A stretch of 45,002 nucleotides of DNA from Chloroflexota bacterium (GCA_011322445.1 DRMV01000039.1:1-45002); one strand, 5' to 3'; shown: positions 5,134 through 45,002, numbered from the stretch's first letter. Made by a program: numbers and translations. The notes: a model not told the origin generated them from the sequence alone.

Positions 5134-5178
5134 GGTTTCCTCCTTACGAGTCAAGCGAGTCAAACGGACAAAGGTGTG

Positions 5179-5211
5179 AAAAACAAACGCCGCTTGCACA
5201 AGCAAGCGGCG
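5179..5211 (-). terminator. intrinsic terminator between the two glutamate dehydrogenase genes
   Basis: A perfect 10-bp stem, CGCCGCTTGC (5188-5197) with GCAAGCGGCG (5202-5211) and a 4-base loop, is followed on the minus strand by TTTGTTTTT. It sits just after the stop of copy 2, so copy 1 probably needs its own promoter or receives only read-through. Confidence 0.85.
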
Positions 5212-5218
5212 TCACAAC

Positions 5219-6505: not shown

Positions 6506-6524
6506 GACAAAAGTCGCTCCATTC

Positions 6525-6562
6525 TGAAAAAGATAAACGGGCACCCATCGGGATGGTGCCCG
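6525..6562 (-). terminator. terminator-like hairpin between gatB and glutamate dehydrogenase copy 2
   Basis: CGGGCACC pairs with GGTGCCCG (6538-6562). On the minus strand the stem is followed by the T-rich tail TTTATCTTTTT. It lies 110 bases after the gatB stop and 20-60 bases before the dehydrogenase start, so it may end gatB transcription or act in the dehydrogenase leader. Confidence 0.6.
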
Positions 6563-6672
6563 CTCTTGCTCACTTATGGGGAAAAGGCGCGCCAACGAGG
6601 TGTCTTCATCACCATAGATGCCTTGAACGTGGAGGTTATGCTCTCGCCTACGGTTTAAGATTACCCCAAACT

Positions 6673-8151: not shown

Positions 8152-8173
8152 AAAGTTGCCTCATTGCAAAATA

Positions 8174-9811: not shown

Positions 9812-9872
9812 TGCGCCTTCGCTCCCAATGCAAACGGCCACCTGCATGGCCTCCGGCGAATTTCTTCCCTTG

Positions 9873-9878
9873 ATTATA
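9873..9878 (-). promoter_or_regulatory. candidate -10 box for the protease gene
   Basis: TATAAT on the minus strand, about 62 bases before the protease ATG. No clear -35 is present. Confidence 0.4.
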
Positions 9879-9933
9879 CCGCGCCCCCTCCCAGGGCCTG
9901 GTGTCTATCCGGGAAATCACTCGGGGCAGGTTC

Positions 9934-10557
9934 TTACAGCCACTTCACCACAATGTCGCCAATGACGTTCGCGGCTTCATCACCACGGTCGGCCGCGTTG
10001 GAAAGGTGGCGGTAGATTTCCCGCAGTTTGAGGATGTTCATGACGTCGTCCAGCGTCTGCGGGGCGGCAAACAGGTGCGCCAGCGCTTCGCGATACACCT
10101 TCTCGACCCGATTTTCCAGCGCCTTGGCCCGCACGGCGTGCTCATTGGCTACATTCGGGTGGCTTCCCAGCCGCTCTACACCGCGATAGACCTCGGCAGC
10201 CGCGTCGTGCAGCAACGAAACCATGCGGCTGATGTATTGGTTGGGTTTTACCTCGAAAATCTCCATCTCGTCCACCGTGGTGTAGGCGTAATCCAGCATA
10301 TCGTCAATGGTGAGCGAAAGGGCGAAAATATCCTCGCGGTCAAACGGCGTCACAAAAGTGCGGTTGAGTTCATCAATCAAAATGCGGCGGGCTTCGTCCG
10401 CTTCCTTTTCAATCTCGCGCAGGCGGCGCGCGACGGCCTCGGAAGGCTTCTCGACGTACTCCTGCAACACATGAAAGCCTTCCAGTGTCAATTCGGCCTG
10501 CTGCATCAGCAGTACCACAAACCGATTTGGCTTCTTACCTCGTCGAAACAAACCCAT
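9934..10557 (-). CDS. DUF47 / PhoU-like protein
   Basis: A 207-residue all-helical cytoplasmic protein resembling DUF47, a PhoU-related family commonly found with low-affinity phosphate (PiT) transporters. Typical features: short basic N-terminus (MGLFRRGKK), the REIEKEADEARR acidic helix, and DREDIFALSLTIDDMLDYAY, the most conserved family motif with probable metal-binding acidic residues. The ATG at 10557 shares one base with the tilS stop (TAATG) and is preceded by AGGAGG inside tilS, so translation is coupled to tilS. No phosphate transporter gene is next to it; its partner may be elsewhere. Confidence 0.8.
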   Translation of the reverse strand: MGLFRRGKKPNRFVVLLMQQAELTLEGFHVLQEYVEKPSEAVARRLREIEKEADEARRILIDELNRTFVTPFDREDIFALSLTIDDMLDYAYTTVDEMEIFEVKPNQYISRMVSLLHDAAAEVYRGVERLGSHPNVANEHAVRAKALENRVEKVYREALAHLFAAPQTLDDVMNILKLREIYRHLSNAADRGDEAANVIGDIVVKWL

Positions 10558-11975
10558 TATGCATTCCTCCTCAAAGAAAGACTCACGGCAGCGGTCGTTG
10601 CCGCCGTAATGCGAGCAGGGTGAGCCACCGCGAGCAACGGCACCCACACCACCTCTTCACCGGAAACCACCAGGGGCCAGCGCGCCCGCAGCCGCGGCGG
10701 GATTTTGGCGTTCACCATCAGGTCGGCGATTTTCTGCCGCCGGCCGCCCATACCCAGGGGAGCCAGTGTGTCGCCCGGGCGACGGGGGCGCACCACCAGG
10801 GGGAAGGCCAGCGCCGCGGCATCCAGCCATGCCGTCGCGGGCTCGCTGCGGGGGTCCGCCGGGGGAAGGGTAAGGGCCGAGGCCACAAGCGCCCACCCTG
10901 CCGCGAGGGGCACCGAGCCGCTAGGCTCCAGGGGGAAAGCCCGCGCCGCCGACAATTGCGGCCAGGCCTCAGCAGGCAACACCGCACCCTTCCGCGCCAC
11001 CCACAAAGTTTCCGGCTCGACCCACAGGGACAACCCACCAAACCAATCACGCGCACCGCCGCCGGGGCGCGTGGCCGCGCGGCGGGCGGCTTCCACCTCC
11101 TCAAAGCCGACTTCCGGCACTTCCAACCGTGCCGCCGCCCAACGCAACCAGCGGCGTTGCAAAGCCAACGGAGCGGCCAAAAACGCCCGACGCCGCCATC
11201 CTACAAAGCCCGGGCCTTGCGCCGCCAACACCTCCGTCAAGCGACGGCGGGCTTCCGCAGCCAGGAAATCCTCCTCCGCCGCGGCCACGGCTGCCAGCCG
11301 CCCCAAGGCAGCATCCAGCGCCGGGTTTTCCACCCGCAGCCGGGGAAGAATATCCAGGCGCAGGCGGTTACGGAAAAAGTCCCGCTGCCAGTTCGAGGCA
11401 TCCCACCGCAGGGGCAGCCCGTAACGCCGCGCGTAGGCGATCGTCGCTGCGCGGCGCACGGCCAGCAACGGCCGCGCCAGCGGGATTTCGGCATCCCAGC
11501 GGGGGAAACGGCGGCACGGCCGCAGCCCCGCCAACCCCGTCAAACCGCTGCCACGCAAGAGGTGCATCAGCACCGTCTCGCTCTGGTCATCGGCGGTATG
11601 CCCCACCGCCACAGCAACAGCATGTTGGTCGCGCGCCACGCTAAACAGGAAGCGATAGCGCGCCTCCCGTGCCGCGGCCTCCACCGGCTGACGCTCGGCC
11701 ATCGCCTGCGCAGCCACGTCGGCGCGCCTCATCACCCAGGGAACGCCCAATTTCCGGGCCACGGCCTCCACCGCCGCGGCGTCGGCATCGGCGGCTTCCC
11801 GCAAGCCGTGGTGCAAATGGGCTGCCGTGACCTTATAGCCCAGGGCATGCAGCGCATGAAGCAGCGCCAGGCTATCGGGGCCACCCGACACCCCCACCAC
11901 CAGCCGCGCCCCCGCTTCCAGCCCACAGGCCGAGGCCAGGGTATCTCGCACGGCTGTTTGCAGTTCGTCGGGCAT
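10557..11975 (-). CDS. tilS: tRNA(Ile)-lysidine synthase
   Basis: TilS converts cytidine 34 of tRNA(Ile2) to lysidine using ATP and lysine, changing decoding from AUG to AUA. The PP-loop SGGPDS (residues 30-35) is intact, followed by AHLHHGLR and later GHTADDQSET, both family signatures. The protein has 472 residues and ends with a TilS C-terminal-like domain (RPRRPGDTLAPLGM..RQKIADLM). The reading frame is very Ala/Arg-rich, in line with high GC. It lies downstream of a promoter-like sequence and a terminator-like hairpin and is coupled to the DUF47 gene. Confidence 0.94.
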   Translation of the reverse strand: MPDELQTAVRDTLASACGLEAGARLVVGVSGGPDSLALLHALHALGYKVTAAHLHHGLREAADADAAAVEAVARKLGVPWVMRRADVAAQAMAERQPVEAAAREARYRFLFSVARDQHAVAVAVGHTADDQSETVLMHLLRGSGLTGLAGLRPCRRFPRWDAEIPLARPLLAVRRAATIAYARRYGLPLRWDASNWQRDFFRNRLRLDILPRLRVENPALDAALGRLAAVAAAEEDFLAAEARRRLTEVLAAQGPGFVGWRRRAFLAAPLALQRRWLRWAAARLEVPEVGFEEVEAARRAATRPGGGARDWFGGLSLWVEPETLWVARKGAVLPAEAWPQLSAARAFPLEPSGSVPLAAGWALVASALTLPPADPRSEPATAWLDAAALAFPLVVRPRRPGDTLAPLGMGGRRQKIADLMVNAKIPPRLRARWPLVVSGEEVVWVPLLAVAHPARITAATTAAVSLSLRRNA

Positions 11976-11990
11976 GGAGCACCTGCCTGG

Positions 11991-12037
11991 TTAAAAAACA
12001 CCCTGCCGCCCTCACCGTGGCTTCCCGTCAGGGCGGC
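11991..12037 (-). terminator. terminator-like hairpin in front of tilS
   Basis: On the minus strand GCCGCCCT pairs with AGGGCGGC (12005-12012 with 12030-12037), and the stem is followed by AGGGTGTTTTTT. It lies between the deoxynucleoside kinase stop and the tilS start. It may end the kinase transcript or, because a -10-like TATAAT lies upstream of it, act as an attenuator in the tilS leader. Confidence 0.6.
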
Positions 12038-12079
12038 TCAAGACAACATCATGGGCGCACGCTACGCCAACATGTGCAG

Positions 12080-12085
12080 ATTATA
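12080..12085 (-). promoter_or_regulatory. candidate -10 box for tilS
   Basis: TATAAT on the minus strand (GGGTTATAATC), about 105 bases before the tilS ATG and 13 bases after the kinase stop. The -35 is weak. Confidence 0.4.
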
Positions 12086-12097
12086 ACCCAAGTCCCC

Positions 12098-12739
12098 CTA
12101 CGGCCACACCACCTCTTCCTTTCCCGCCAGTTTCTCTTGAATTTTGCTCACGATGAGGTCCAGGTGTGGCGGATGTGCGACGTAATCCAAATCGTCAGCA
12201 GGCACGGTCAACACGGGGCAAAGGGTAAAGTTTTGCAGCCATTCTTCGTACAGGCGGTTGAGTTGCGCCAGATATTCCGCCGAAATGCCGCGCTCGTAGT
12301 CGCGGCCCCGGCGGGCAATGCGCGCTCGCAGGGTGGGCACCGAGGCCCGCAAATACACCACCAGGTCAGGCGGCGGCAGGAACGTCACCAGGGCATCGTA
12401 CAAACCCCGGTAGGTTTGCCAATCGCGCTCGGCCATGTGCCCTTGCAAATAAAGGTTGCGAGCAAAAATTTCAGCATCTTCGTACACGCTGCGGTCTTGC
12501 ACCACCGAAGTGGGGTGCAGCATCAAGCGGTGATGAATGCGCAGCCGATGAGAAAGGAAAAACACCTGCGAATGGAAAGCCCAGGCCCGCATGTCGCGAT
12601 AAAAATCGGGCAAATAAGGGTTTTCGGCTTCCGGCTCGTAAAACGGCGCCCACCCCAATCGCTCGCTCAACAAGTGAACCAGGGTTGACTTACCCACGCC
12701 AATGTTTCCGGCCACGGCAATGAATCGCTTTTGTTGCAT
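12098..12739 (-). CDS. deoxynucleoside kinase (deoxyguanosine/deoxyadenosine kinase type)
   Basis: A 213-residue kinase of the dNK/dGK family that phosphorylates deoxynucleosides for salvage. The P-loop is GNIGVGKS (11-18). A conserved glutamate follows in FYEPEAENPYL, the catalytic-helix motif QDRSVYEDAEIF contains DRS at 82-84, and the lid-type arginines RARIARRGRDYE are present. The start codon directly abuts the stop of the preceding inositol-phosphatase gene (TAA then ATG), so they form an operon. The exact base preference (purine or pyrimidine) is not determinable. Confidence 0.88.
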   Translation of the reverse strand: MQQKRFIAVAGNIGVGKSTLVHLLSERLGWAPFYEPEAENPYLPDFYRDMRAWAFHSQVFFLSHRLRIHHRLMLHPTSVVQDRSVYEDAEIFARNLYLQGHMAERDWQTYRGLYDALVTFLPPPDLVVYLRASVPTLRARIARRGRDYERGISAEYLAQLNRLYEEWLQNFTLCPVLTVPADDLDYVAHPPHLDLIVSKIQEKLAGKEEVVWP

Positions 12740-13519
12740 TTACGCCTCCCCGTGCAACACCTTCAGCATTTCCGCGTGCAGCGCCGCGTTGGCAGCGACG
12801 ATCGACTGCGGCGGCGAAAGGTAATCTCCACCGCCTTGCAGATTGGTCACCAGCGCGCCAGCCTCGGCTGCAATCAGCCCCCCCGCCGCCACATCCCACG
12901 GCTTGAGGCGGATTTCCCAATAGCCGTCGAAGCGCCCGGCGGCCACATAACACAGGTCCAACGCCGCCGAACCCAGCCGCCGCACACCGTGGCTGCGGAC
13001 GGCAAAGCGGGCGAAGTTGTCGAGGTTGTTGTCGGGGTTCTCCCAAACGTCGTAAGGGAAGCCCGTGACCAAAAGCGCCTGTGCCAGAGAAGCCGTGGCC
13101 GACACCCGCAGCGGCTGCCCGTTGAGGAAAGCGCCTTTGCCTCGCTCGGCAGCAAAGCACTCGTCGCGCATGGGGTCATACACCACCCCCAGACGCACGC
13201 CGTCGCCCTCGGCGTAAGCAATGGAAACCGAGAAAATGGGCACACCGTGGGCAAAGTTAACCGTGCCGTCAAGGGGATCAACATACCACAGGCGCTCGTC
13301 GCCGCGGTGGGCACCGCTTTCCTCGGCCAGAATGCTGTGGTCGGGCCAACGCTGTTGGATGCTTTCCAGCAAAAAGGCTTCCGAGCGGCGGTCGGTTTCC
13401 GTCACCAGGTCGATGGCATGGCTTTTGCTGTCAATCGTATGGCTTTGGCCATAACCGGCGCGCAAAATCACACCGGCCTGGCGGGCTAAAATTTCCAGGT
13501 CGTCTAAAGTGGGTTGCAT
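12740..13519 (-). CDS. inositol-monophosphatase family phosphatase
   Basis: A Mg-dependent phosphatase fold of 259 residues. Metal-binding motifs are visible: ILAEESG (64-70) and WYVDPLDGTVNFAHG, with DPLDGT at 81-86. The C-terminal WDVAAGGLIAAEAG motif completes the site. Candidate substrates in the family are inositol phosphate, fructose 1,6-bisphosphate, histidinol phosphate and 3'-phosphoadenosine 5'-phosphate, so the substrate is open. The start at 13519 lies just after the response-regulator stop. An earlier in-frame ATG at 13534 would overlap that gene and lacks a purine-rich ribosome site. Confidence 0.87.
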   Translation of the reverse strand: MQPTLDDLEILARQAGVILRAGYGQSHTIDSKSHAIDLVTETDRRSEAFLLESIQQRWPDHSILAEESGAHRGDERLWYVDPLDGTVNFAHGVPIFSVSIAYAEGDGVRLGVVYDPMRDECFAAERGKGAFLNGQPLRVSATASLAQALLVTGFPYDVWENPDNNLDNFARFAVRSHGVRRLGSAALDLCYVAAGRFDGYWEIRLKPWDVAAGGLIAAEAGALVTNLQGGGDYLSPPQSIVAANAALHAEMLKVLHGEA

Positions 13520-13520
13520 C

Positions 13521-14141
13521 TCAATGGCCTGCATCGGGGGGATGAAGAAGGTCGTCGATGGCCGCGAGTTCTTCGCGAATGGTCTGGCGTTCGCGGCGCG
13601 CTTCGGCCAGCATGGCAGCGAAAGAAGGCTTTTGCGCGTCGGGCAACGTGGGAAGCAACCGCTCCAGGCGCGCAATCTGGCGGTCCTTGTAACGCAGTTT
13701 GTTTTCCAGCCGCTCCCGATAGCCGCGATAAAAGGCCGCGTCGTCCAGCGGCGGCCTGGGTTCGGCTTCCTGCTGGTGCAACACCTCGGCCACCGTCAAG
13801 AGGAATTCCTCGGCATCGATGGGCTTTTCCAAAAAGCGCACCGCCCCCAGGCTGAGGGCAAATTCCTTATCTTCGGGGGAAACGTAAGTCGCCGAAACGA
13901 ACACAATGGGCAGCGTGCGGGTGGCGGGGTCGCGGCGCAAGCGCTGAGCCAGGGCAAAGCCATCCAGCCGCGGCATGAGAATATCGGTGACAAGCAAGTC
14001 GGGGTAGCGGGCGGCGATCTTCTGCAACGCCTCTTCGCCATCGGCTGCGGTTTCCACGGTGTAGCCTTTGAATTCCAGCGTCACCCGCAGCAGTTCCCGC
14101 ACGGCCGGCACGTCTTCGACAACCAGAATGGTGTGTGTCAT
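13521..14141 (-). CDS. response regulator receiver protein with C-terminal helical region
   Basis: 206 residues. An N-terminal CheY-like receiver (about 3-120) has the acidic pocket in VVEDV, the phospho-acceptor Asp53 in LLVTDILMP, a Thr/Ser switch in VFVSATY and the conserved lysine in FLEKPID. The C-terminal 80 residues are Arg/Glu/Leu-rich and probably helical or coiled coil (RERLENKLRYKDRQIARLER). No DNA-binding output domain is seen, so signalling is more likely through protein contacts. No histidine kinase gene is adjacent. It heads the leftward IMPase-kinase gene pair and diverges from the L,D-transpeptidase gene. Confidence 0.88.
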   Translation of the reverse strand: MTHTILVVEDVPAVRELLRVTLEFKGYTVETAADGEEALQKIAARYPDLLVTDILMPRLDGFALAQRLRRDPATRTLPIVFVSATYVSPEDKEFALSLGAVRFLEKPIDAEEFLLTVAEVLHQQEAEPRPPLDDAAFYRGYRERLENKLRYKDRQIARLERLLPTLPDAQKPSFAAMLAEARRERQTIREELAAIDDLLHPPDAGH

Positions 14142-14190
14142 AGGGCTATTGTAGCCCGAATGCCGCCGCGCGGCAAGGGGCACACGCTGG

Positions 14191-14196
14191 TATAAT
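14191..14196 (+). promoter_or_regulatory. extended -10 promoter element for the L,D-transpeptidase gene
   Basis: TGGTATAATG contains the TGN extension plus a perfect TATAAT, 30 bases before the GTG start. A matching -35 is not obvious, as is usual for extended -10 promoters. Confidence 0.6.
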
Positions 14197-14225
14197 GCCC
14201 CCATGCTACGGCCCGGAGGTGGAAG

Positions 14226-15296
14226 GTGACGCTCTCAAGACGGGATGTATTGAAACTGGCAGCAGCAGGCTTTGGCGCGGGGCTGCTGGTGCCGCGCCTT
14301 CGTCTCAGGCACGCGGCCGAATTCCCCACAAACGTACCCCTGGGGCGCGTGTGCATCGGCGGCAAGGTAGAGGTGAAAGCCCGCCCCAATGCCGACAGCC
14401 CCACGGTGGCTGTGCTTTACGAAGACGCGGTGGTGCCGTGGGAAAAGGAAGTGGTGGGGGTCAACATGCACCGCGTCAACCAGCGCTTCGTGCAGACGCC
14501 CCAGGGCTACATCTGGGAACCCACCCTCCAGCCCGTGTGGAACCACCCCAACAAGCCGCTCAAAACCTTCCCCTACGCCAAAGACGGCATGTGGGTGGAA
14601 GTTACCGTGCCGTATGTGGATATCGTGCTCGCCAACCCACCGGCGCGCTCGCCCTGGCTGAAAGAAACCACCCGCCCGCGGCTCTATTACAGCCAGATCA
14701 TGTGGGTAGACCAGATCAAAGAAGGCCAGGACGGGGCCGTGTGGTATCGCGTCGGCGACCGCTACGGCTCTTACGGCGATATTTTCTGGGCGCGCGCCGA
14801 AGCCTTCCGCCCGATCACCCCTGAAGAAATCACCCCCATCCACCCCGAAGTGGAAGACAAACGCGTGGTCGTGGATGTCAATTACCAGACCATGGCATGC
14901 TACGAAGGGAAAGAAGAGGTTTTCTTTACCCGCGTCTCTACGGGCGCGAAATTCAACGCCGAAGGGAAAGCCGTGGACAAATGGGCCACCCCTGTGGGCA
15001 CTTTCCCCATCTGGCGCAAACTGATTGCCGTGCACATGAGCGGCGGCACCACCGGCGGCGGCTACGACCTCCCCGGCATCGGCTGGACCACGCTCTTCGT
15101 CGGCACGGGCATCTCCATCCACGCGACCTTCTGGCACAACGACTACGGCGTGCCGCGTTCCCACGGCTGCGTGAACGCCCGCCCGGAAGACGCCAAATGG
15201 GTCTTCCGCTGGACGCTGCCCGTGGTGTCCTATGACCCCGGCGATGTCACCGTGCCCATGCCCGGCGGCACGAAAATCACCGTGGTGGAAGGCTGA
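14226..15296 (+). CDS. exported L,D-transpeptidase (YkuD domain)
   Basis: Forms or remodels 3-3 peptidoglycan cross-links, or attaches proteins, outside the cytoplasmic membrane. The N-terminus SRRDVLKLAAAGFGAGL (4-20) is a twin-arginine (Tat) type signal. A region around 38-75 looks like a bacterial SH3-type wall-binding stretch. The C-terminal YkuD domain carries His299 and the catalytic SHGCVN block with Cys315. Start is GTG at 14226 after a GGAGGTGGA ribosome site. 356 residues in total. The gene stands alone between a divergent regulator and a repeat-rich gap. Confidence 0.9.
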   Translation: MTLSRRDVLKLAAAGFGAGLLVPRLRLRHAAEFPTNVPLGRVCIGGKVEVKARPNADSPTVAVLYEDAVVPWEKEVVGVNMHRVNQRFVQTPQGYIWEPTLQPVWNHPNKPLKTFPYAKDGMWVEVTVPYVDIVLANPPARSPWLKETTRPRLYYSQIMWVDQIKEGQDGAVWYRVGDRYGSYGDIFWARAEAFRPITPEEITPIHPEVEDKRVVVDVNYQTMACYEGKEEVFFTRVSTGAKFNAEGKAVDKWATPVGTFPIWRKLIAVHMSGGTTGGGYDLPGIGWTTLFVGTGISIHATFWHNDYGVPRSHGCVNARPEDAKWVFRWTLPVVSYDPGDVTVPMPGGTKITVVEG

Positions 15297-15339
15297 GCGC
15301 GCCTCCGGCCACCCCACACAGCGACACACCCCCAAATGC

Positions 15340-15560
15340 GCGTATCTGTTCAGCCTCAGGAGGAAGAAACCGCAGATTGCGCAGATTGTGCAGAAAAAAC
15401 ATCCACAGAGATTTCACGGATGAGCACAGATTGGGGCTGTGATTGGGCAAAAAACGCTGAAAAGCCCAACGCTCACTTCCGTTTCTTGGCGGCCTTGGCG
15501 TTCTCTTGGCGACCTTGGCGACCTAAAATCCGCGCCATCCGCGGCCTGTTTCTCCAAGGC
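15340..15560 (+). repeat. intergenic simple-repeat debris between the L,D-transpeptidase gene and pyrD
   Basis: The 295-base gap holds no convincing gene. It contains tandem variants of GCAGATTGCGCAGATTGTGC, an ATTTCACGGATGAGCACAG segment, several CTTGGCG copies within about 40 bases, and ATCCGCG/ATCCGCGG. Similar CAGATTACGCAGATT-type sequence occurs at 17742-17756 and near 18080-18105. These look like degenerate dispersed repeats. Confidence 0.5.
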
Positions 15561-15579
15561 TGAACGGTTACCAATGCGC

Positions 15580-15585
15580 TAAAAT
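15580..15585 (+). promoter_or_regulatory. candidate -10 box for pyrD, very close to the start codon
   Basis: TAAAAT ends six bases before the pyrD ATG, which would place the transcription start at or next to the start codon (leaderless or nearly so). No ribosome site is visible ahead of pyrD, which fits. Confidence 0.45.
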
Positions 15586-15591
15586 ATCCCC

Positions 15592-16593
15592 ATGTATGCC
15601 TTGCTGCGCCCGCTGCTGTTCCGGCTGGAGCCGGAACGCGCCCACGCCCTCACCCTGCATCTGCTGCGGCTGGCAGGAAACCTGCCGCCCGCCTGTGCGC
15701 TCATCCGGCGGCTGTGGGGTGCGGGCGAAAAGCCGGTGCGCCTCTGGGGGCTGACCTTCCGCAACCCGGTGGGGCTGGCCGCGGGCTACGACAAAGATGC
15801 CCTCGCCTGGCGCGGTCTGGCCTGCCTCGGCTTCGGCCACATTGAGGTCGGCACGGTCACGCCGCGGCCGCAGCCCGGCAACCCCCGTCCGCGCCTTTTC
15901 CGCCTGCCCGAGCAGCACGCGCTCATCAACCGGATGGGCTTCCCGGGGCGCGGGGCCGAATTCGTCACCCGCCGCCTGCAGGGCAAACGCCCGCCCGGCG
16001 TGGTGCTGGGTGTGAACATCGGCCGCAACAAGGCCACCCCCAACGCCCGCGCCGCCGAGGATTACCGCCTGCTGGTGCGCCGCTTCGCCCCCCTGGCCGA
16101 CTACCTCGCCGTGAACGTCAGTTCCCCCAACACCGAAGGGCTGCGGCGGCTGCAGGCCCGCAGCGCGCTGGAAACCCTGCTGCGCGCCCTCCTCGCCGAG
16201 CGGGATGCCGCCCCCGCGCGCCCGCCCCTGCTGGTCAAACTTTCCCCCGACCTGACGCCCGCCGACCTGGACGATGCCCTCGACGCCCTCCTCGCCGCCG
16301 GGGTGGACGGCGTGATTGCCACCAACACCACCACCGGCCGCGAAGGGCTGCCTTCCCGCTGGCAGGAGGAAGCCGGCGGCCTGAGCGGCGCGCCCCTGCG
16401 GGAACGCAGCACCGCCTTCATCCGCGCCATCCACCGCCGCGCGCCCGACCTGCCGATCATCGGCGTGGGCGGCATCATGGCCCCCGCCGACGCCCGCGCC
16501 AAACTGGAAGCCGGGGCATCGCTGGTGCAGGTCTTCACCGGCCTGGTCTATGCCGGGCCTTCTCTGCCCCGCCGCATCGTGGAGGCGCTGTAA
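15592..16593 (+). CDS. pyrD: dihydroorotate dehydrogenase, quinone-dependent (class 2)
   Basis: Oxidises dihydroorotate to orotate in pyrimidine synthesis, passing electrons through FMN to the quinone pool at the membrane. The 333 residues include the class 2-type N-terminal helical extension (residues 1-45). GLAAGYDKDA, INRMGFPGRG and the NVSSPNTEGLR block with the class 2 catalytic serine are present, as is the FMN-phosphate motif GVGGI followed by ASLVQVFTGLVYAGP. No ribosome site is evident. The next gene starts at the base after the stop. Confidence 0.95.
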   Translation: MYALLRPLLFRLEPERAHALTLHLLRLAGNLPPACALIRRLWGAGEKPVRLWGLTFRNPVGLAAGYDKDALAWRGLACLGFGHIEVGTVTPRPQPGNPRPRLFRLPEQHALINRMGFPGRGAEFVTRRLQGKRPPGVVLGVNIGRNKATPNARAAEDYRLLVRRFAPLADYLAVNVSSPNTEGLRRLQARSALETLLRALLAERDAAPARPPLLVKLSPDLTPADLDDALDALLAAGVDGVIATNTTTGREGLPSRWQEEAGGLSGAPLRERSTAFIRAIHRRAPDLPIIGVGGIMAPADARAKLEAGASLVQVFTGLVYAGPSLPRRIVEAL

Positions 16594-17325
16594 ATGCCGC
16601 ACCTCTGTGTGCGCTTCCATGCCGAGTTGCAGGAATTTTTCCCGCCCCAGCGCCGCGGCCGCCCGGTGGAGATGGCCTTCCGCGGCCCGCAAACGGCCAA
16701 GCACCTGCTGGAAGCCGCGGGCGTACCCCATGTGGAAATCGGCGCCGTGCGGCTCGGCGATGCCGCTTTCCCGCTGAACGCGGTGCCGCCCGCGGGCGCC
16801 TGCCTGGAGGTCTTCCCCCGCACCCCGCGGGAACGATGGCCGGCCGACCTGCCTTCCCCGCGCTTCGCACTGGACGGCCACCTCGGGCGATTGGCTTCCT
16901 ACCTGCGGCTGCTCGGCTTCGACACCGCCTACCGCAACGAAGTGGACGATGCCGACCTGGTCGCGCAGGCCGTAGCGGAACGGCGGGTGGTGCTCACCCG
17001 CGACCAGGATTTGCTGAAGCGCAAGGCACTAACCTACGGCTACTGGGTGCGGGCCACCGACCCTCACGCCCAGGCCGCCGAGGTGCTGGAACGCTTTGCC
17101 ATCGCATCGCTGGCGCGGCCGTTCACCCGCTGCCCGCGCTGCAACGGCCTGCTGGCGCCGGTGCCCAAAGCCGAGGTGCTGGCCCAACTGGAGCCGCTCA
17201 CCCGCCGCTACTATGACGAGTTCTACCGCTGCCAGACCTGCAGCCAGGTGTACTGGCGCGGCAGCCATTACGAGCGCATCGCGGCACTGGTGCGCCGCTG
17301 GCTGGCCGACGAGCCTTTGACCTGA
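16594..17325 (+). CDS. ubiquitin-like domain plus Mut7-C RNAse domain protein
   Basis: 243 residues with two parts. Residues 1-80 resemble the ubiquitin-like/ThiS-like Mut7-C N-terminal module (RFHAELQEFF, then LEVFPR). Residues 88-235 resemble Mut7-C, a PIN-like nuclease module with Asp94 (FALDGHLGRLASYLRLLGFDT), acidic residues near 118-119 and Asp137 (LTRDQDLL), ending in a zinc ribbon of Cys180/Cys183 and Cys213/Cys216 (CPRC..CQTC). It is presumed to act on RNA; the biological target is unknown. The start directly follows the pyrD stop. Confidence 0.85.
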   Translation: MPHLCVRFHAELQEFFPPQRRGRPVEMAFRGPQTAKHLLEAAGVPHVEIGAVRLGDAAFPLNAVPPAGACLEVFPRTPRERWPADLPSPRFALDGHLGRLASYLRLLGFDTAYRNEVDDADLVAQAVAERRVVLTRDQDLLKRKALTYGYWVRATDPHAQAAEVLERFAIASLARPFTRCPRCNGLLAPVPKAEVLAQLEPLTRRYYDEFYRCQTCSQVYWRGSHYERIAALVRRWLADEPLT

Positions 17326-39064: not shown

Positions 39065-39068
39065 AAGG

Positions 39069-39103
39069 TGACCCATGCAGGACTCGAACCTGCAACCAAG
39101 GGC
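39069..39103 (-). other. tRNA 3' fragment, probable attachment site of the island
   Basis: On the minus strand the T arm GCAGG-TTCGAGT-CCTGC (39077-39093) and acceptor strand ATGGGTC plus A73 (39069-39076) are intact, with a variable-loop-like TGGTT before. No CCA is encoded. Upstream there is no U33, anticodon loop, D arm or GACCCAT partner strand; instead the integrase coding end runs into it, its stop overlapping the fragment. This is what remains when an element integrates into a tRNA gene. Amino acid identity cannot be read from this half. Confidence 0.8.
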
Positions 39104-39951
39104 TATGGTTTTCTAGGGATTATGCTCTCTGATGGAAGGTACTGCTGGAAGTCCTCTATGGTAAGCGCCCGCGTGTAACGCTCTACCATGTCCAGCCCCT
39201 CCCATCCGCCAGCCAGTTGCACAAGGCGCGAGGGCGCGCCGGCGCGAATGGCAAGGGTAGCAAAGGTGCGCCTGAAATCGTGGGGGCTAATCAATCCTAT
39301 CCCCGCCTGTTTGCCCAATTTCCGAAAGATGATTTTCAGGCCGCTGGGGGTAAGCGATGTACCTGGCTTTTTGCCCCCAATAGACACAAAGACCGTTTGT
39401 GTTCCCTCGCTCGCCTCCCGTGCTTCAAGCCAGGCGCGTAACGCTTCTTCTGTTGGCTCCCCAAAAATGCAGGTGCGCCACTTGCCGCCTTTGGCGAGCA
39501 CTGAAAGGCGGCGGGCTTCCAGGTCTAAAAAGCGCATCTCCAACCGGCACACCTCAGACGCCCGCAGGCCGGTGTCCAGTAAGAGCAGGATTAGTGCGCG
39601 GTTGCGCTTTCCAATGGGGGTATCAGGAAGGATTGCCAGCAAACGAGTAATTTGCTCGGGTGTGAGAGTGCGCTGGGGTTTGCCCCGTTCTTTGCGCTGG
39701 AAACGGTATCGCAGGGCAGGGTGCAATTCGCCATGCCGCCAGCGCAGGAAATTCCGCACCGCGATATAGGCCAGCCAGCGCATGTTTTCACCCCAACTTT
39801 CGTGCCCTTCCAGCCACCGCTTGAACTCAATGGCCGTGAGGGTGGACGTGTCGGCGACGTCTTCCAGAAACAGCGTCAGGACGCGGCGGTAACTGGCTTC
39901 AGTGGCTACGCTCCAAGAGTGAGTGGCGAAGAAATCGTCAAGTATCCGCAT
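39103..39951 (-). CDS. tyrosine recombinase / integrase (XerC/D-like)
   Basis: 282 residues from ATG 39951 (AAGGAGG eight bases before). N-terminal SAM-like DNA-binding domain (about 1-85), then the catalytic domain. Active-site residues: Arg130 (TGLRASEV), Lys154/Lys157 (LAKGGKW), His224 and Arg227 (SPHDFRRTFA), Trp250 in place of the second His (LAGGWEG), nucleophile Tyr259 (MVERYTRA). The stop lies in the tRNA fragment. It most likely carried out the insertion and could excise the island. It is compact, like XerC/D and many small-island integrases. Confidence 0.92.
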   Translation of the reverse strand: MRILDDFFATHSWSVATEASYRRVLTLFLEDVADTSTLTAIEFKRWLEGHESWGENMRWLAYIAVRNFLRWRHGELHPALRYRFQRKERGKPQRTLTPEQITRLLAILPDTPIGKRNRALILLLLDTGLRASEVCRLEMRFLDLEARRLSVLAKGGKWRTCIFGEPTEEALRAWLEAREASEGTQTVFVSIGGKKPGTSLTPSGLKIIFRKLGKQAGIGLISPHDFRRTFATLAIRAGAPSRLVQLAGGWEGLDMVERYTRALTIEDFQQYLPSESIIPRKP

Positions 39952-40047
39952 TGGTTTCCTCCTTGCTCTTGGTGGTAATTCCCCCAAACGTACCACCCTT
40001 TTTACAATTGCTTTGTTGACAGGGGAAATCATGTCGCACAATTCGGC

Positions 40048-40053
40048 TATAAT
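40048..40053 (+). promoter_or_regulatory. candidate -10 box of the defence cassette
   Basis: TATAAT 19 bases before the start, followed by AGGAGG at 40061-40066. It lies in the divergent gap with the integrase. A TTGACA at 40016 is 26 bases away, too far to be the matching -35. Confidence 0.5.
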
Positions 40054-40072
40054 AGGAAGCAGGAGGTGAGTC

Positions 40073-41059
40073 ATGTCTAATCCATGCAATGATCAATTTT
40101 CTCTTTCTATCAAGCCACAACTGCTCTCGTGGCTTCAAAAGGCTAAAAGGGCCTCAAAGGGACGTTTCGTAGTTTATTCCGCAGTTTTTGGAGTGTTAGA
40201 AGCAATACGCGAGCACGGTTGGCCAATAGCCCGCTCATACTACGTAAGCAAGGGCAACCAAATCCGGATGAACAAGCACAAATTTGAGAAAGTGCTTACA
40301 CGCGCCCTCGGGCCAAAACGCACTGCCCTTCTAAAAGTACCAAGAGAAGGCGGCAGAACAACACGCAGCACCCCAGCAGTAGCAGATAAATTCGTGGACT
40401 GGCTGAAGTCCGTCTTCCCACCCGAATTAGACAGTGAAACGGCGAAAGATTATGCCGATTGCTTGGAACTTTTTGCTTCAGAAGATTTTGAACAATTCAT
40501 GCTTTCACAGGCGGGCATCTCTGTTCCCAAGCCGTCCCCTCAATTTCCGCTTTCTGAATTTGTGCAAAAAATCATTGAAAAGGCAGGCAACAAGCGAGGG
40601 GCAGTTATTCACCACTTGGTTGGGGCTAAACTCGCTATCAGATTAGGGCAAAGCGACGAGCTGGAGCCGCGCCCCTATACAGCAGCAGACAAGCAAATCG
40701 ACGTGCCCGGAGACTATTGGTACCGCAATACAGCCTTCCACGTCACGGCCGCGCCGTCAGGGGAACTTCTGAAAAAATGCCAGGATAACCTTGCCAAAGG
40801 TTGGAGAGTGTGGATAATTACGCTGCGAGAGGGCGTGGAGACAGCCAGAATATTGGCAAAAGACCTGGACGCGAAATTAGCAAAAAACATACAAGTAGTA
40901 TCCGTGCCAGAGTTTGTAGGGCAGAACCTTGAGGAAATTGGCGCTTTTGCGTCTGACAATATCGCTCAACAAGCAGAAAGATTACTTCAGGAGTACAATG
41001 ATAGAATAGACAAAGCAGAAGACGGCGACCCTACTCTAAAAATAATTTTTGGCTCCTGA
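40073..41059 (+). CDS. DUF4928-like protein, probable restriction endonuclease partner of the methyltransferase
   Basis: 328 residues. Segments such as EGGRTTRST (N-terminal half), KRGAVIHHLVGAKLAIRL, GDYWYRNTAFHVTAAPS and VPEFVGQNLEEIGAF match my memory of DUF4928 proteins, which sit beside C5 methyltransferases. The GD...FHVT region resembles the core of a PD-(D/E)XK nuclease, although a clean E-x-K is not seen. It is the first gene of a four-gene run (23-base gap to the methyltransferase) in AT-rich DNA. Role as the restriction enzyme is inferred from context. Confidence 0.72.
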   Translation: MSNPCNDQFSLSIKPQLLSWLQKAKRASKGRFVVYSAVFGVLEAIREHGWPIARSYYVSKGNQIRMNKHKFEKVLTRALGPKRTALLKVPREGGRTTRSTPAVADKFVDWLKSVFPPELDSETAKDYADCLELFASEDFEQFMLSQAGISVPKPSPQFPLSEFVQKIIEKAGNKRGAVIHHLVGAKLAIRLGQSDELEPRPYTAADKQIDVPGDYWYRNTAFHVTAAPSGELLKKCQDNLAKGWRVWIITLREGVETARILAKDLDAKLAKNIQVVSVPEFVGQNLEEIGAFASDNIAQQAERLLQEYNDRIDKAEDGDPTLKIIFGS

Positions 41060-41082
41060 AACTTGCTTCATGACGAGGCGTT

Positions 41083-42282
41083 ATGAGTATTAGCGCGAAC
41101 GGCATTCAGTTTACAGTAGCAGAATATTTTGCAGGTATTGGGCTGGTGCGCATGGGATTGGAACGTTGCGACGGTCAAGTGGTTTGGGCAAATGACATTT
41201 CTGCTAAAAAGTTTGAAATCTACAAGGCATTCTTTCCCTCCGCAGAGCAAGAATACGTGGTAGAAGACATCTTCAGTATCAACCCTGACAACATTCCAGC
41301 AACTACCCTGGCAACTTGTTCATTCCCTTGCATTAACCTTTCTGTTGCGGGGAAAATGGACGGCATCCACGGGAAACACTCCAGCGCGTTTTGGGGGTTC
41401 GTGCGCGCTATAGAACACCAAAGAGGTAAGGGGGAACATCCTCCCCTAATAATGGTGGAGAACGTTCCTGGCTGGCTATATTCCAACAAAGGGCAAGACT
41501 TTCGCCTAACAGTTCAGGCGCTAAACGATTTGGGCTACGTGTGCGACGTTTTCACAGTAAACGCCCGCAGTTTCGTTCCCCAAAGCAGATTGCGCGTATT
41601 TCTAATCGGGATGCGAAGTGATGTTTTTGGGCAAGCAGACGATGGAGAGGTTTACGCCGCCCACGTACAAAAACGGTCTGCACTTTTAGCGCCCGACAGC
41701 CTGCGGCGCAGCATTGAAACGTGCAAAGATTTAGCCTGGAAATGGTTAGACATCCCCGAACCACCGCCATTGAAGAAAACAGGTTTGGCGAGCATCGTTG
41801 AGGATTTACCGGAAGACCATCCTCTTTGGTGGCCAGAGAAGGAAGTGCAACGGCATTTGGAAATGATGGCAGCAAGCCATCGCGAGCGCGTCAAGGCACT
41901 TATGGAGAAAAATGAAATTTCCTACCGCACCTTTTTCCGCCGAATGCGAAACGGCAAACAGCGCGTTGAAGTGCGGCGCGATGAAATAGCAGGATGCCTG
42001 CGAACCGCTGTGGGCGGAAGCGCCCAACAATTTATCTTACAAGCAGGGAAAGGCCGCATTCGCATGAGACACATGACGCCTCGCGAATACGCTCGTTTAC
42101 AAGGTACACCCGATGCTTTTTTTCTCCCTCCCAACATTGGGCGCGTACAGGCTCTCACCGGATTTGGAGATGCTGTTTGCGTTGACGTCATCGAATGGAT
42201 TGCCTGCAATGTAATTACGCCCCTTGTAAAACAAATGAGCGTTTCGCTGTCTCCAAATTATGCCCGACAACTTGTCTCCTGA
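41083..42282 (+). CDS. DNA (cytosine-5) methyltransferase
   Basis: Transfers methyl from SAM to carbon 5 of cytosine in a target site. 399 residues with motifs in order: I AEYFAGIG (13-20), IV CSFPCINLS with catalytic Cys83, VI VENVPG (125-130), VIII QSRLR (167-171), a target recognition region (about 180-325), IX MTPREYARLQGTP (331-343) and X GFGDAVC (360-366). Overlaps the vsr gene by 23 bases. Together with the DUF4928 gene and vsr this forms a type II-like restriction-modification unit. The target sequence cannot be predicted. Confidence 0.94.
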   Translation: MSISANGIQFTVAEYFAGIGLVRMGLERCDGQVVWANDISAKKFEIYKAFFPSAEQEYVVEDIFSINPDNIPATTLATCSFPCINLSVAGKMDGIHGKHSSAFWGFVRAIEHQRGKGEHPPLIMVENVPGWLYSNKGQDFRLTVQALNDLGYVCDVFTVNARSFVPQSRLRVFLIGMRSDVFGQADDGEVYAAHVQKRSALLAPDSLRRSIETCKDLAWKWLDIPEPPPLKKTGLASIVEDLPEDHPLWWPEKEVQRHLEMMAASHRERVKALMEKNEISYRTFFRRMRNGKQRVEVRRDEIAGCLRTAVGGSAQQFILQAGKGRIRMRHMTPREYARLQGTPDAFFLPPNIGRVQALTGFGDAVCVDVIEWIACNVITPLVKQMSVSLSPNYARQLVS

Positions 42283-42688
42283 AAACCGCCGCAAGGCCAT
42301 GAAAGCCATTAAAAGCAAAGGCACATCGCCAGAGCGCTCTTTGTGGGCGATGCTTGCCGGAATGCGGTTGAAGGGTTGGCGAAAAAACGCCCAAGATCTA
42401 CCGGGAAAGCCCGACGTGGTCTTCGACAAAGAGAAAGTGGCCATCTTCATAGACGGCTGCTTTTGGCACGGCTGCCCTATATGCAACAGGGGCGTTCCAG
42501 AAAACAATCGCGAGTATTGGGTTCGCAAGATTGAGCGGAACCAGCAGCGTGCCAGAGAAGTCACAATGGCGTTGCAAAAAGCGGGGTGGGTTGTGCTGCG
42601 CTTTTGGGAGCACGAAATGCGGCGAGAACGAAATACAATACGAGAAAAGATTAGGCGAGAAATCATTCTGAGAAGAAACGCCCCCTAA
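42260..42688 (+). CDS. vsr: very short patch repair (Vsr) endonuclease
   Basis: Nicks DNA at T:G mismatches produced by deamination of 5-methylcytosine in the site of the linked methyltransferase. 142 residues with the standard N-terminus ENRRKAMKAIKSKGTSPE, Asp52 in GKPDVVF and the FIDGCFWHGC motif (63-72, His70). Cys72, Cys75 and neighbours fit the zinc site. Starts inside the methyltransferase gene, the classic arrangement, which ensures co-expression. Confidence 0.94.
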   Translation: MPDNLSPENRRKAMKAIKSKGTSPERSLWAMLAGMRLKGWRKNAQDLPGKPDVVFDKEKVAIFIDGCFWHGCPICNRGVPENNREYWVRKIERNQQRAREVTMALQKAGWVVLRFWEHEMRRERNTIREKIRREIILRRNAP

Positions 42689-42717
42689 TCCTGCGCCAAA
42701 ATACACTAAAAACTTGG

Positions 42718-43911
42718 ATGGAAAAGCAAATGTACCCCACAATCTCCTCCGTAGTTGAGTTAAAAGCGTTAATTGACAATCAAGTTGAAGAATCAAAATG
42801 GTTGGACTATAAGCGCGAAATACACTTGTCTTCAGATAAGGATAAGAGAGAGTTTCTCAAAGATGTGTCCGCTTTCGCTAACACAGAAGGTGGCTATCTT
42901 GTATATGGCGTGGCAGAACAAGAAGGACGCCCGGCAAATATCATTGGGGTTGAGGGAAATATTGATGAAATCAAATTGAGGATGGAGCAAATCCTCGAAA
43001 CAGGATTAAATCCTCGTTTATACGGACACACCATTACCCCTTACACACTTGAAGGCAAAACGGTATTAGTGATCCATATACCTGTCAGTTGGAACCGTCC
43101 TCACATGGTATTGAAAGATGATTATAGATTTTACGAGCGCACAAATGCGGGGGTAGCACGGATGGACGTAAGCGGTTTGAAAAACGCTTTTTTAGAGGCC
43201 GTCTCTCTCGTAGAGCGCGCCGAGGCGTTCCGTCAACATCGCGCAGAAGCAATCTTACAAAATCCGACCCTAAAACAGAGAGAAACCAACAAAAAGCAAG
43301 GGGTTGTTGTATGGCATTTCCTTCCTTTCCAATCTTTCTCGCCAGGTTTTCAAATAGATTTGAGCAACGACGAGACCTTACAAGGCTTTTACAAGCTAAA
43401 AGATGTTCATAGAGGAAGGTTCAATTTCGAGGGATACCAACGAGGTAACTGGTACGAAGACTCGCTCCTTGAAGAATACTGGCAAGTTTTCAGAGATGGG
43501 AAAATAGAATATGTATCCGCACGAACTATTATGACTGTTCATGACAAGGTTTCCTTGCCATTAGGGCGCATAGACTACCTTACGGCAAACTTCTGGCTCC
43601 CTAATTTATCTTTGCTCCAAAAATTACTACATCTTTCCCCCCCTTATCTCATGGGGCTATCAATACTGAACATACAAGGATTAACTCCCTTTATCAATCC
43701 ATCCAAAACATTTAGTATACCTACACCGATCCCCAACCGCGACCATTTATTTTTCCCTTACCAAGCACTTGAAGACTGGTCACAAGGCTCCTTGTTTGAA
43801 GCATTACACAACCTGCTTGAACAGTTTTGGCAAAGTTTTGGAATCTCCCAAGACTTGTACTTTGAGGATGACGTAACAAAAGCACTGGACACAATCTTCC
43901 TAATGGAATAA
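42718..43911 (+). CDS. Schlafen/AlbA_2-domain protein with unknown C-terminal region
   Basis: 397 residues. N-terminal AlbA_2 (Schlafen-type, ATP-binding or nuclease-like) domain at about 20-165: EESKWLDYKREI (24-35), FLKDVSAFANTEGGYLVYGV (46-65) and FYERTNAGVARM. The remaining 230 residues are rich in aromatics and match nothing I recognise. The acidic/lysine residues Glu24/25, Asp30, Lys32 are in the position of the catalytic set of Schlafen tRNA/DNA nucleases. Start could be 42718 or the ATG at 42730, which has a GGAAAA before it. It follows vsr by 29 bases, which suggests a defence role; this is inference from context. Confidence 0.72.
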   Translation: MEKQMYPTISSVVELKALIDNQVEESKWLDYKREIHLSSDKDKREFLKDVSAFANTEGGYLVYGVAEQEGRPANIIGVEGNIDEIKLRMEQILETGLNPRLYGHTITPYTLEGKTVLVIHIPVSWNRPHMVLKDDYRFYERTNAGVARMDVSGLKNAFLEAVSLVERAEAFRQHRAEAILQNPTLKQRETNKKQGVVVWHFLPFQSFSPGFQIDLSNDETLQGFYKLKDVHRGRFNFEGYQRGNWYEDSLLEEYWQVFRDGKIEYVSARTIMTVHDKVSLPLGRIDYLTANFWLPNLSLLQKLLHLSPPYLMGLSILNIQGLTPFINPSKTFSIPTPIPNRDHLFFPYQALEDWSQGSLFEALHNLLEQFWQSFGISQDLYFEDDVTKALDTIFLME

Positions 43912-43926
43912 GCGAACTCTTCGCTT

Positions 43927-43960
43927 TATAAAAACAGCACGGCGGGTAGCCGTGCTGTTT
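43927..43960. terminator. bidirectional terminator between the AlbA_2 and SWIM genes
   Basis: AAACAGCACGGC (43932-43943) pairs perfectly over 12 bp with GCCGTGCTGTTT (43949-43960), loop GGGTA. On the minus strand it is followed by TTTATAAAG, ending the SWIM gene. The plus-strand tail (GCGTTTGG) is weaker. Confidence 0.8.
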
Positions 43961-43971
43961 GCGTTTGGGGG

Positions 43972-44622
43972 TCAGGCATAGGCAGGGATATTCACGGGCA
44001 AGCGCACAGGATGACGGTGGAAGAAAGCGGCAAGCGCGTCTTCCGTAAGCATCCACGCTGTAGAGGGCAGTCGTGAGACGACCTCCTCCTTGAAAACGCC
44101 CTTCAAATCCTCGGCGGCTTCCTCGTTGCCGAGACAATCCGCCAGGATGGAGAGCGCCAAATCCGCCGGGCCGCTGCCAGCGTAGCCCCACTCGAAGCCT
44201 GTAGGGCTGTGCATCTCCACGTGGCGCAAGAGGAAAGAGTTTCCATCCCGCACCACGTGCACCCGCGGCCCTTCGGCGGTGCGGAAGCCCACATAGGCTA
44301 CGCGAGCAGCAGCCATCGAAGCCATGAGCACATGCTTACAGATATGCCCGTGGCCGTGGCGCTGCCAGTCGGGGCAGGTGCAGACGGGCATTCCTGCCCC
44401 AAAGCGCACTTTGTAGGCCGTGCCGTCGGTTTTTGCCACCTGATAAAGACCAGGCCGCAACTCGCTGACGGTGTACTCGCCCTTTGCCAGCCCTTCCACC
44501 GCGCGCTGGTAGCGCGCGGCAAGGGCGGTTTGCGTGGCGGGTTTCCGCCGGCGCGGGCTTTTGCGTTGCCCGCTGATGGCAGCGCCCAACCTGGCCGCTT
44601 GGGTGCCAGTAAGACCGTACAT
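43972..44622 (-). CDS. SWIM zinc finger plus DUF6166 domain protein
   Basis: 216 residues. Basic N-terminus (QRKSPRRRKPA), a SWIM zinc finger at about 60-100 (Cys81, Cys83, Cys95, His97 in CTCPDW...CKH), then a C-terminal region (about 108-205) with HSPTGFEWGYAGSGPADLAL, LADCLG and FKEEVVSRLP, matching the DUF6166 pattern as I recall it. SWIM fingers bind nucleic acid or proteins. DUF6166 is common on plasmids and integrated elements; its role is not known to me. AGGAGG lies seven bases before the ATG. GC-rich, unlike the cassette to its left. Confidence 0.8.
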   Translation of the reverse strand: MYGLTGTQAARLGAAISGQRKSPRRRKPATQTALAARYQRAVEGLAKGEYTVSELRPGLYQVAKTDGTAYKVRFGAGMPVCTCPDWQRHGHGHICKHVLMASMAAARVAYVGFRTAEGPRVHVVRDGNSFLLRHVEMHSPTGFEWGYAGSGPADLALSILADCLGNEEAAEDLKGVFKEEVVSRLPSTAWMLTEDALAAFFHRHPVRLPVNIPAYA

Positions 44623-44896
44623 GACTCACCTCCTGAAGGACTGCCCCGCCGCACGCGCGGGGCAGATGAATGAGTTTCATTGCCCGGCGTGCGCGGATAC
44701 AGCCACCAGAAGGCGGCCACTATTCGCTTGGTAAGGTGCTGCCTTGCCTGAACAACCCCGCTTCAGGGGCGTGTCGCCACGTCCCCAAAGCGGGAGTGTC
44801 CAGCATCTGGCAGGGGCAGGGCGTGGACACCCTGCACCCCGCCAGTAAGCGTCAAGGGAGAGAGGCGGGTAGCCTCTCTCTTTTGGCACCTTGACG
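44623..44896. other. structured intergenic region between SWIM and ssb
   Basis: 275 bases with no convincing gene. Inverted repeats succeed one another: CCCCGC/GCGGGG (about 44642-44658); CCCGCTT...AAGCGGG enclosing GGGGCGTG/CACGTCCCC (about 44757-44803); GTGTCCA...TGGACAC (about 44806-44829); and, at the end, CGTCAAGG/CCTTGACG (44850-44857, 44889-44896) around the terminator. A 22-codon frame at 44667 with CPAC is too weak to call. Could be a leader, an untranslated RNA or ssb 3' region. Confidence 0.45.
44858..44884 (+). terminator. terminator-like hairpin near the ssb end
   Basis: GAGAGAGGC (44858-44866) pairs with GCCTCTCTC (44872-44880), loop GGGTA, followed on the plus strand by TTTT. 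On the minus strand no T tract follows, but the outer stem CGTCAAGG/CCTTGACG makes it a longer hairpin directly after the ssb stop. Confidence 0.6.
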
Positions 44897-44897
44897 A

Positions 44898-45002
44898 TTA
44901 GAAGGGAATGTCATCGTCAAAGTCAAAGGGCGGTTCGGGCGGCGGCGGGGGAGCGCCGTTGCCCTTACCGTTGTGGCCGTTGCCGTTCACCGTTTCCGGC
45001 TC
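44898..45002 (-). CDS. ssb: single-stranded DNA-binding protein, C-terminal part (cut by window end)
   Basis: Only the last 34 residues are in the window; the 5' end lies beyond 45002. They read as a Gly/Asn/Pro-rich linker (NGNGHNGKGNGAPPPPP) ending in FDFDDDIPF, the acidic SSB tip that binds partner proteins of replication and repair. Stop TAA at 44898-44900. SSB genes are frequent on conjugative and integrative elements, which fits the island, but a chromosomal ssb cannot be excluded. Confidence 0.85.
   Translation of the reverse strand, partial: EPETVNGNGHNGKGNGAPPPPPEPPFDFDDDIPF

What the first reader, a model, noticed from the sequence alone, without database searches (positions are those of the whole stretch)
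40073..43911. Four-gene cassette: DUF4928-like, C5 methyltransferase, Vsr and Schlafen/AlbA_2 protein
The first three genes form a plausible type II restriction-modification-repair unit. The fourth, 29 bases after vsr and on the same strand, brings a Schlafen-type domain. If the fourth gene regularly travels with this unit, it could be a second defence layer (for example triggered when restriction fails) not described for this R-M family.
Basis: partly seen in the sequence, partly recalled or inferred. Interest (0 to 1): 0.7.

Follow-up and report, generated by a model that had tools for sequence, protein, structure and literature searches.

The report
Restriction-modification cassette beside unrelated Schlafen gene
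A laterally acquired island in an Anaerolineae (Chloroflexota) genome carries an ordinary three-gene restriction-modification-repair set next to a separate Schlafen-type, probably RNA-cutting, defence gene; the pairing occurs in none of about 110 related loci, so it looks like shared cargo and not a new two-layer system.

Summary
All four genes are really there: DUF4928 (40073-41059), C5-cytosine methyltransferase (41083-42282), Vsr (42260-42688) and a Schlafen/AlbA_2 protein (42718-43911), all on the + strand. They lie in a low-GC segment beside a tyrosine recombinase and a 36-nt tRNA-Lys(CTT) 3'-end copy, i.e. a tRNA-integrated island.

The first three genes are a recurrent unit. Of 98 DUF4928 loci, 91 have the methyltransferase and 69 have Vsr. 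A model of DUF4928 matches the restriction enzyme EcoT38I along almost its whole length.

The fourth gene is not part of that unit. AlbA_2 lies near DUF4928 only in this window (1 of 98), and in 0 of 15 DUF4928 loci found through close methyltransferase relatives. Full-length relatives of the AlbA_2 protein stand alone, beside integrases or inside prophages, never beside this unit. Its N-terminal half has the fold of Schlafen RNases and acidic residues at the three catalytic positions.

Best reading: two independent defence genes co-resident on one island, perhaps co-transcribed. Another island in the same genome, with an 88%-identical recombinase remnant, carries other defence genes. Bacterial Schlafens as anti-phage genes are already reported. 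New member of known kinds; low interest.

The parts
39067..39102 (-). 36-nt copy of the 3' end of a tRNA-Lys(CTT) gene, probable attachment site at the chromosome/island junction
   Evidence: matches the 3' end of the complete tRNA-Lys(CTT) genes of relatives; no complete tRNA in the window
39103..39951 (-). Xer-like tyrosine recombinase; ORF is open to 40089, start inferred at the ATG at 39951
   Evidence: PF00589 E=2e-34; PHROG integrase; 88%-identical remnant on contig C8
40048..40053 (+). TATAAT box upstream of the cassette; the surrounding 25 nt (40032-40056) recur exactly in the second island
   Evidence: sequence; exact 25-nt repeat at G000:C8:15190-15214. Promoter function inferred
40073..41059 (+). 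DUF4928 protein, probable type II restriction endonuclease of PD-(D/E)XK type
   Evidence: PF16280 E=1.3e-43; PADLOC REase_II E=1.9e-27; model pLDDT 93 matches EcoT38I, Z=12.3 over 264 residues
41083..42282 (+). C5-cytosine DNA methyltransferase
   Evidence: PF00145 E=5e-46; TIGR00675 above cut-off; HhaI methylase E~2e-23
42260..42688 (+). Vsr mismatch endonuclease
   Evidence: TIGR00632 136 bits, above cut-off; PF03852
42718..43911 (+). Schlafen/AlbA_2 protein (397 aa): N-terminal Schlafen core (about residues 12-150) plus a C-terminal region of about 240 aa; co-resident cargo, not a regular member of the unit
   Evidence: PF04326 E=1.3e-20; model pLDDT 82 matches SLFN5/11/12/13/14 and SAMD9 tRNase domain; E25/D30/E67 at catalytic positions
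43932..43960 (+). 12-bp hairpin, terminator-like, just after AlbA_2
   Evidence: fold z=-4.3; 31-nt segment 94% identical beside the integrase of the second island
43972..44622 (-). SWIM zinc-finger / DUF6166 protein, rest of the island
   Evidence: PF19663 E=5e-25, PF04434 E=4e-6
44898..45002 (-). C-terminal end of an SSB-like protein (ends DFDDDIPF), cut by the contig end
   Evidence: open-ended ORF; the acidic tail is the reason for the name, inference

Best explanation
Two independent defence modules lie side by side on one tRNA-Lys-integrated island. Module 1 is a type II R-M set: the methyltransferase marks a DNA site with 5-methylcytosine, the DUF4928 protein (EcoT38I-like PD-(D/E)XK nuclease) cuts unmarked incoming DNA, and Vsr nicks at T:G mismatches left when 5-methylcytosine deaminates. 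Module 2 is a single-gene bacterial Schlafen: a metal-dependent RNase core, probably cutting tRNA or rRNA when infection is sensed by its own C-terminal region, which stops translation. They share the island and perhaps a transcript, but not a mechanism. Shown: gene content, families, folds, rarity of the pairing, island setting. Inferred: nuclease activities, substrate, trigger, co-transcription.
For: R-M-V unit: of 98 DUF4928 loci 91 have the methyltransferase, 69 Vsr, 1 AlbA_2 (the window). Independent Pfam scan of 147 genes downstream of the unit in other loci: no family follows in more than 3, and PF04326 is not among the families with two or more members although the window's own gene (member 1) scores. 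Close methyltransferase relatives (55-62% identity, class Anaerolineae): 15 loci with DUF4928, 0 with AlbA_2. Conversely, full-length relatives of the Schlafen gene have no DUF4928, methyltransferase or Vsr nearby and sit alone, beside integrases (L140; L018) or between prophage structural genes (L185, L187, L196). DUF4928 model = EcoT38I fold. AlbA_2 model = Schlafen core, acidic triad positions kept. Island: low GC, recombinase, tRNA-Lys end. A second island with an 88%-identical recombinase remnant carries type I R-M, PD-Lambda-2 and Dsr1-like genes.
Against: Same strand, 29-nt gap, no terminator between vsr and AlbA_2 and a strong hairpin only after AlbA_2 make one transcription unit likely, so some coupling in this genome cannot be excluded. 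No activity was tested. DUF4928 lacks a canonical E-x-K motif (conserved D206, D214, H223 and K186 instead).
Confidence: 0.82

Rival explanations
1. One reading: the Schlafen RNase is a second layer wired to this R-M unit, firing when restriction fails.
For: Co-directional, 29-nt gap, shared terminator-like hairpin. Schlafen RNases are described as back-up effectors beside BREX (PMC12839542).
Against: 0 of 97 other DUF4928 loci and 0 of 15 close-relative loci have it; its relatives live without the unit; different composition, GC 0.43 against 0.48-0.52. It lacks the histidine-kinase/wHTH partner domains named for BREX Schlafens (only PF04326 found).
Confidence: 0.06
2. The AlbA_2 protein is not an RNase but a DNA- or RNA-binding regulator, for instance of the R-M genes or of the island.
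For: AlbA_2 domains occur in proteins annotated as HTH or ATP-binding proteins; Alba-like folds bind nucleic acid; second and third acidic residues are swapped (E to D, D to E) relative to SLFN13.
Against: Positions 25 and 67 are Glu in all ten aligned relatives, position 30 is always Asp or Glu, with Lys32 invariant; best structural matches include RNase Schlafens and the SAMD9 tRNase domain; the solved bacterial protein CbCash also has Asp at the second position.
Confidence: 0.12
3. The AlbA_2 gene, or the island, is a non-functional remnant.
For: The island is laterally acquired and cut by the contig end; the second island holds recombinase remnants.
Against: All four reading frames are intact and every DUF4928 position invariant among the aligned relatives is kept in the window protein.
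Confidence: 0.05

Closest known systems
DUF4928-family type II R-M units (methyltransferase, DUF4928 nuclease, Vsr), e.g. on Pseudomonas plasmids
   Same: Same three protein families, adjacent and co-directional
   Different: Order here is R-M-Vsr, shared in the set only with one Anaerolineae locus (L145); most loci are M-R-Vsr, 10 have M and Vsr fused. DUF4928 protein is only 25-34% identical to relatives
EcoT38I restriction endonuclease (PDB 7edb, 7e8r)
   Same: Fold along almost the whole length, Z=12.3 and 9.2
   Different: 10% identity; large rmsd (domain shift); recognition site not known here
Bacterial Schlafens (Taboada et al. [quoted passage not shown] CbCash, PDB 9ylu)
   Same: AlbA_2/Schlafen core with the acidic positions
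   Different: The C-terminal region of about 240 aa is conserved only in this subfamily; the preprint is not held in the library, so subfamily identity was not compared
PADLOC candidate PDC-S50
   Same: Residues 14-136 match, E=7e-9
   Different: Only about a third of the 387-aa profile is covered
Schlafen RNases beside BREX (PMC12839542)
   Same: Idea of a Schlafen effector beside another defence system
   Different: Those are fused to a minimal histidine kinase and wHTH and recur in over 1000 taxa; here no such domains and no recurrence

Membership tests
DUF4928 type II R-M-Vsr unit | DUF4928 protein with the family's invariant residues | tested here: met
   PF16280 150 bits against cut-off 25; invariant K186, D206, D214, H223, N239, N285, E288, N309 kept
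DUF4928 type II R-M-Vsr unit | Adjacent C5-cytosine methyltransferase | tested here: met
   TIGR00675 158 bits against cut-off 101
DUF4928 type II R-M-Vsr unit | Vsr nuclease in the unit (usual, not universal) | tested here: met
   TIGR00632 136 bits against cut-off 98
DUF4928 type II R-M-Vsr unit | Site-specific DNA cleavage blocked by the methyltransferase | not testable with these tools
   needs an assay
PD-(D/E)XK restriction endonucleases (EcoT38I-like) | EcoT38I-like fold | tested here: met
   Z=12.3, 264 residues; next unrelated restriction enzyme at 7.4
PD-(D/E)XK restriction endonucleases (EcoT38I-like) | Canonical (D/E)-x-K catalytic motif | tested here: inconclusive
   D214 is invariant, but the aligned strand reads H-V-T; K186 lies elsewhere
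Schlafen family (Schlafen core RNase) | SLFN_AlbA_2 domain above cut-off | tested here: met
   74.5 bits against 25.3
Schlafen family (Schlafen core RNase) | Schlafen core fold | tested here: met
   SLFN14 Z=11.6, SLFN13 Z=10.4, SAMD9 tRNase Z=10.6
Schlafen family (Schlafen core RNase) | Three acidic catalytic residues (E205, E210, D248 in rat SLFN13) | tested here: met
   E25, D30, E67 at the aligned positions, two conservative swaps (residues from PMC5862951)
Schlafen family (Schlafen core RNase) | RNA cleavage | not testable with these tools
   needs an assay
   1 of 98 loci, the window itself; 0 of 15 close-relative loci
BREX-associated Schlafen effector | Fusion to minimal histidine kinase and wHTH, BREX genes nearby | tested here: not met
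   Only PF04326 found in the protein; no BREX genes among the neighbours scanned here
PADLOC PDC-S50 | Match over most of the profile | tested here: inconclusive
   positions 8-127 of 387, E=7e-9

The most novel reading that the evidence does not exclude
In this lineage the Schlafen RNase has been recruited into the R-M operon and acts as a translation-arresting back-up when restriction fails, a coupling not described for DUF4928 systems.
Probability: 0.05. Interest if true: 0.5.

Novelty: new member of a known kind. Interest (0 to 1): 0.2.

Why it matters
Mostly as a caution: adjacency of a defence gene to an R-M set on an island need not mean a joint system, and here the count settles it. 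Small positive results: DUF4928, still a 'domain of unknown function' in Pfam, has a predicted EcoT38I-like restriction-endonuclease fold, and there is a stand-alone Schlafen subfamily with its own conserved C-terminal region, found in chromosomal islands and as a cargo gene in prophages, suited to plating tests.

Tried and rejected
Regular partnership R-M + AlbA_2: rejected by counts. Phage origin of the R-M unit: no DUF4928 in 50,697 phage records, 12 loci in IMG/VR, none with AlbA_2. Another conserved fourth gene in DUF4928 loci: clustering of 817 neighbours found mostly shadow reading frames, one short upstream reading frame in 7 loci and nothing else recurrent. Finding Schlafen relatives with the window protein alone in viral contigs found none; the alignment found 16. 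Complete tRNA in the window: none. CbCash paper: not found in the library. Fold of the AlbA_2 C-terminal region: only middling matches (AdoMetDC-like, Z about 5.5), not interpreted. Contig numbers could not be tied to named contigs, so proximity was judged from the loci themselves.

Full report
Observation. The four genes are present and intact at the stated coordinates. DUF4928 (328 aa), C5 methyltransferase (399 aa), Vsr (142 aa) and AlbA_2 (397 aa) all score above curated family cut-offs. Vsr overlaps the methyltransferase by 23 nt. AlbA_2 begins 29 nt after vsr. DUF4928 has a perfect ribosome-binding sequence and a TATAAT box upstream. No terminator-like site is found on the + strand between vsr and AlbA_2, and a strong hairpin follows AlbA_2. 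One transcript is therefore plausible but not shown.

Setting. The window is one whole contig (45,002 bases) of a 2.6-Mb, 53-contig genome; named relatives among the matches place it with Anaerolineae (inference). GC falls from about 0.60 to 0.43-0.52 across the cassette. To its left is a tyrosine recombinase and then 36 nt identical to the 3' end of tRNA-Lys(CTT), whose full gene exists in relatives but not in the window. This is the usual mark of an element integrated at a tRNA gene. The island is cut by the contig end after a SWIM/DUF6166 gene and the tail of an SSB-like gene.

The R-M-Vsr unit. I gathered 98 DUF4928 loci: 80 from 84,980 genome species, 12 from IMG/VR, 4 plasmids, one relative and the window. 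Profile searches on all reading frames (tallied) found the methyltransferase in 91, Vsr in 69, methyltransferase and Vsr on one reading frame in 10, and AlbA_2 in one, the window. 85 loci had at least 2.5 kb of downstream sequence. By the rule of three, 0 of 97 others gives an upper limit of about 3% for the true frequency (fewer if only the 84 others with enough downstream sequence are counted: about 3.6%). As a positive control the AlbA_2 profile recovered every AlbA_2 locus fetched independently, 16 of 16 in the viral set. A separate Pfam scan of 147 downstream genes agreed: no family follows the unit in more than three cases; the followers include unrelated ATPases and other defence-like genes.

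Close relatives. Because the wide set might miss this lineage, I searched 396 genomes of the same class with the methyltransferase and read 20 neighbourhoods. Fifteen have DUF4928 beside the methyltransferase (one of them, L240, is the same contig as L041 of the wide set). None has AlbA_2. Only 3 of 201 relatives have DUF4928 at all.

The AlbA_2 gene. Full-length relatives (about 30% identity, including the C-terminal 240 aa) occur in other Anaerolineae (L140-L143), a Rubrobacter plasmid (L018) and prophages (L185-L190, L196). None has DUF4928, methyltransferase or Vsr nearby. Several are in mobile settings: L140 is next to an integrase, L018 next to a tyrosine recombinase, L187 and L196 lie between prophage structural genes on the opposite strand. 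This is how single-gene accessory cargo behaves.

Function. A model of the DUF4928 protein from 54 sequences (pLDDT 93) has EcoT38I as best match (Foldseek probability 1.00; Z=12.3 over 264 residues), well above the next group. PADLOC also files it as a type II restriction enzyme. The catalytic strand does not carry a canonical E-x-K, so the exact active site is open. A model of AlbA_2 (pLDDT 82) matches the Schlafen core of SLFN5/11/12/13/14 and the SAMD9 tRNase domain. Aligned to rat SLFN13, whose E205, E210 and D248 are needed for cleavage (PMC5862951), it has E25, D30 and E67. Position 25 and 67 are Glu in all ten relatives and position 30 is Asp or Glu.

Second island. The same genome carries, on contig C8, a remnant of the recombinase (88% identity), an exact copy of the 25 nt around the cassette's TATAAT box and a 94% copy of the terminator hairpin segment, near a type I specificity subunit and methyltransferase, a PD-Lambda-2 pair and a Dsr1-like gene. 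So related islands in this genome hold different defence genes between shared borders. That fits the view that the cassette is a collection of cargo.

Literature. One library paper mentions DUF4928. A 2026 survey of BREX loci reports Schlafen-family RNases as back-up effectors and cites a 2025 preprint on bacterial Schlafens in anti-phage defence (PMC12839542).

Verdict. Observation confirmed. The R-M-repair reading is supported; the claim of a regular second layer is not. New member of known kinds, interest 0.2.

Noticed in passing
G000:C8 about 4000-16600 (locus L167): Second defence island in the same genome: HepT-like/HsdS fusion-like reading frame, HsdM, PD-Lambda-2 pair (HigB toxin plus IrrE peptidase), Dsr1-like protein, its own integrase, and two remnants of the window's recombinase.
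   Followed up: partly
window 40032-40056 and 43932-43962; L167 11191-11215 and 11466-11496: The promoter-like 25 nt and the terminator hairpin that border the cassette recur beside the integrase of the second island, as if cargo were exchanged between shared borders.
   Followed up: partly
L030, L031, L035, L040, L041, L045, L046, L051, L060, L071: Vsr and the C5 methyltransferase fall on a single long reading frame (about 515-580 aa), apparently natural Vsr-methyltransferase fusions, in ten DUF4928 loci.
   Followed up: no
L185, L187, L196: Schlafen/AlbA_2 genes inserted between prophage tail or head genes on the opposite strand, as accessory genes of prophages; L196 has a small lipoprotein-like gene just upstream.
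   Followed up: no
window 42718-43911, residues about 160-397 of the protein: Conserved C-terminal region of about 240 aa with no Pfam match and no clear structural match; probably sensor or second lobe of this Schlafen subfamily.
   Followed up: partly
L227 4971-6125: A close relative of the methyltransferase is split into two reading frames while DUF4928 and Vsr are intact.
   Followed up: no
window 44607-44625 and 40058-40075: The start regions of the SWIM gene and of DUF4928 share CAGGAGGTGAGTCATGT; may be a common leader in this genome or chance plus a strong ribosome-binding site.
   Followed up: no
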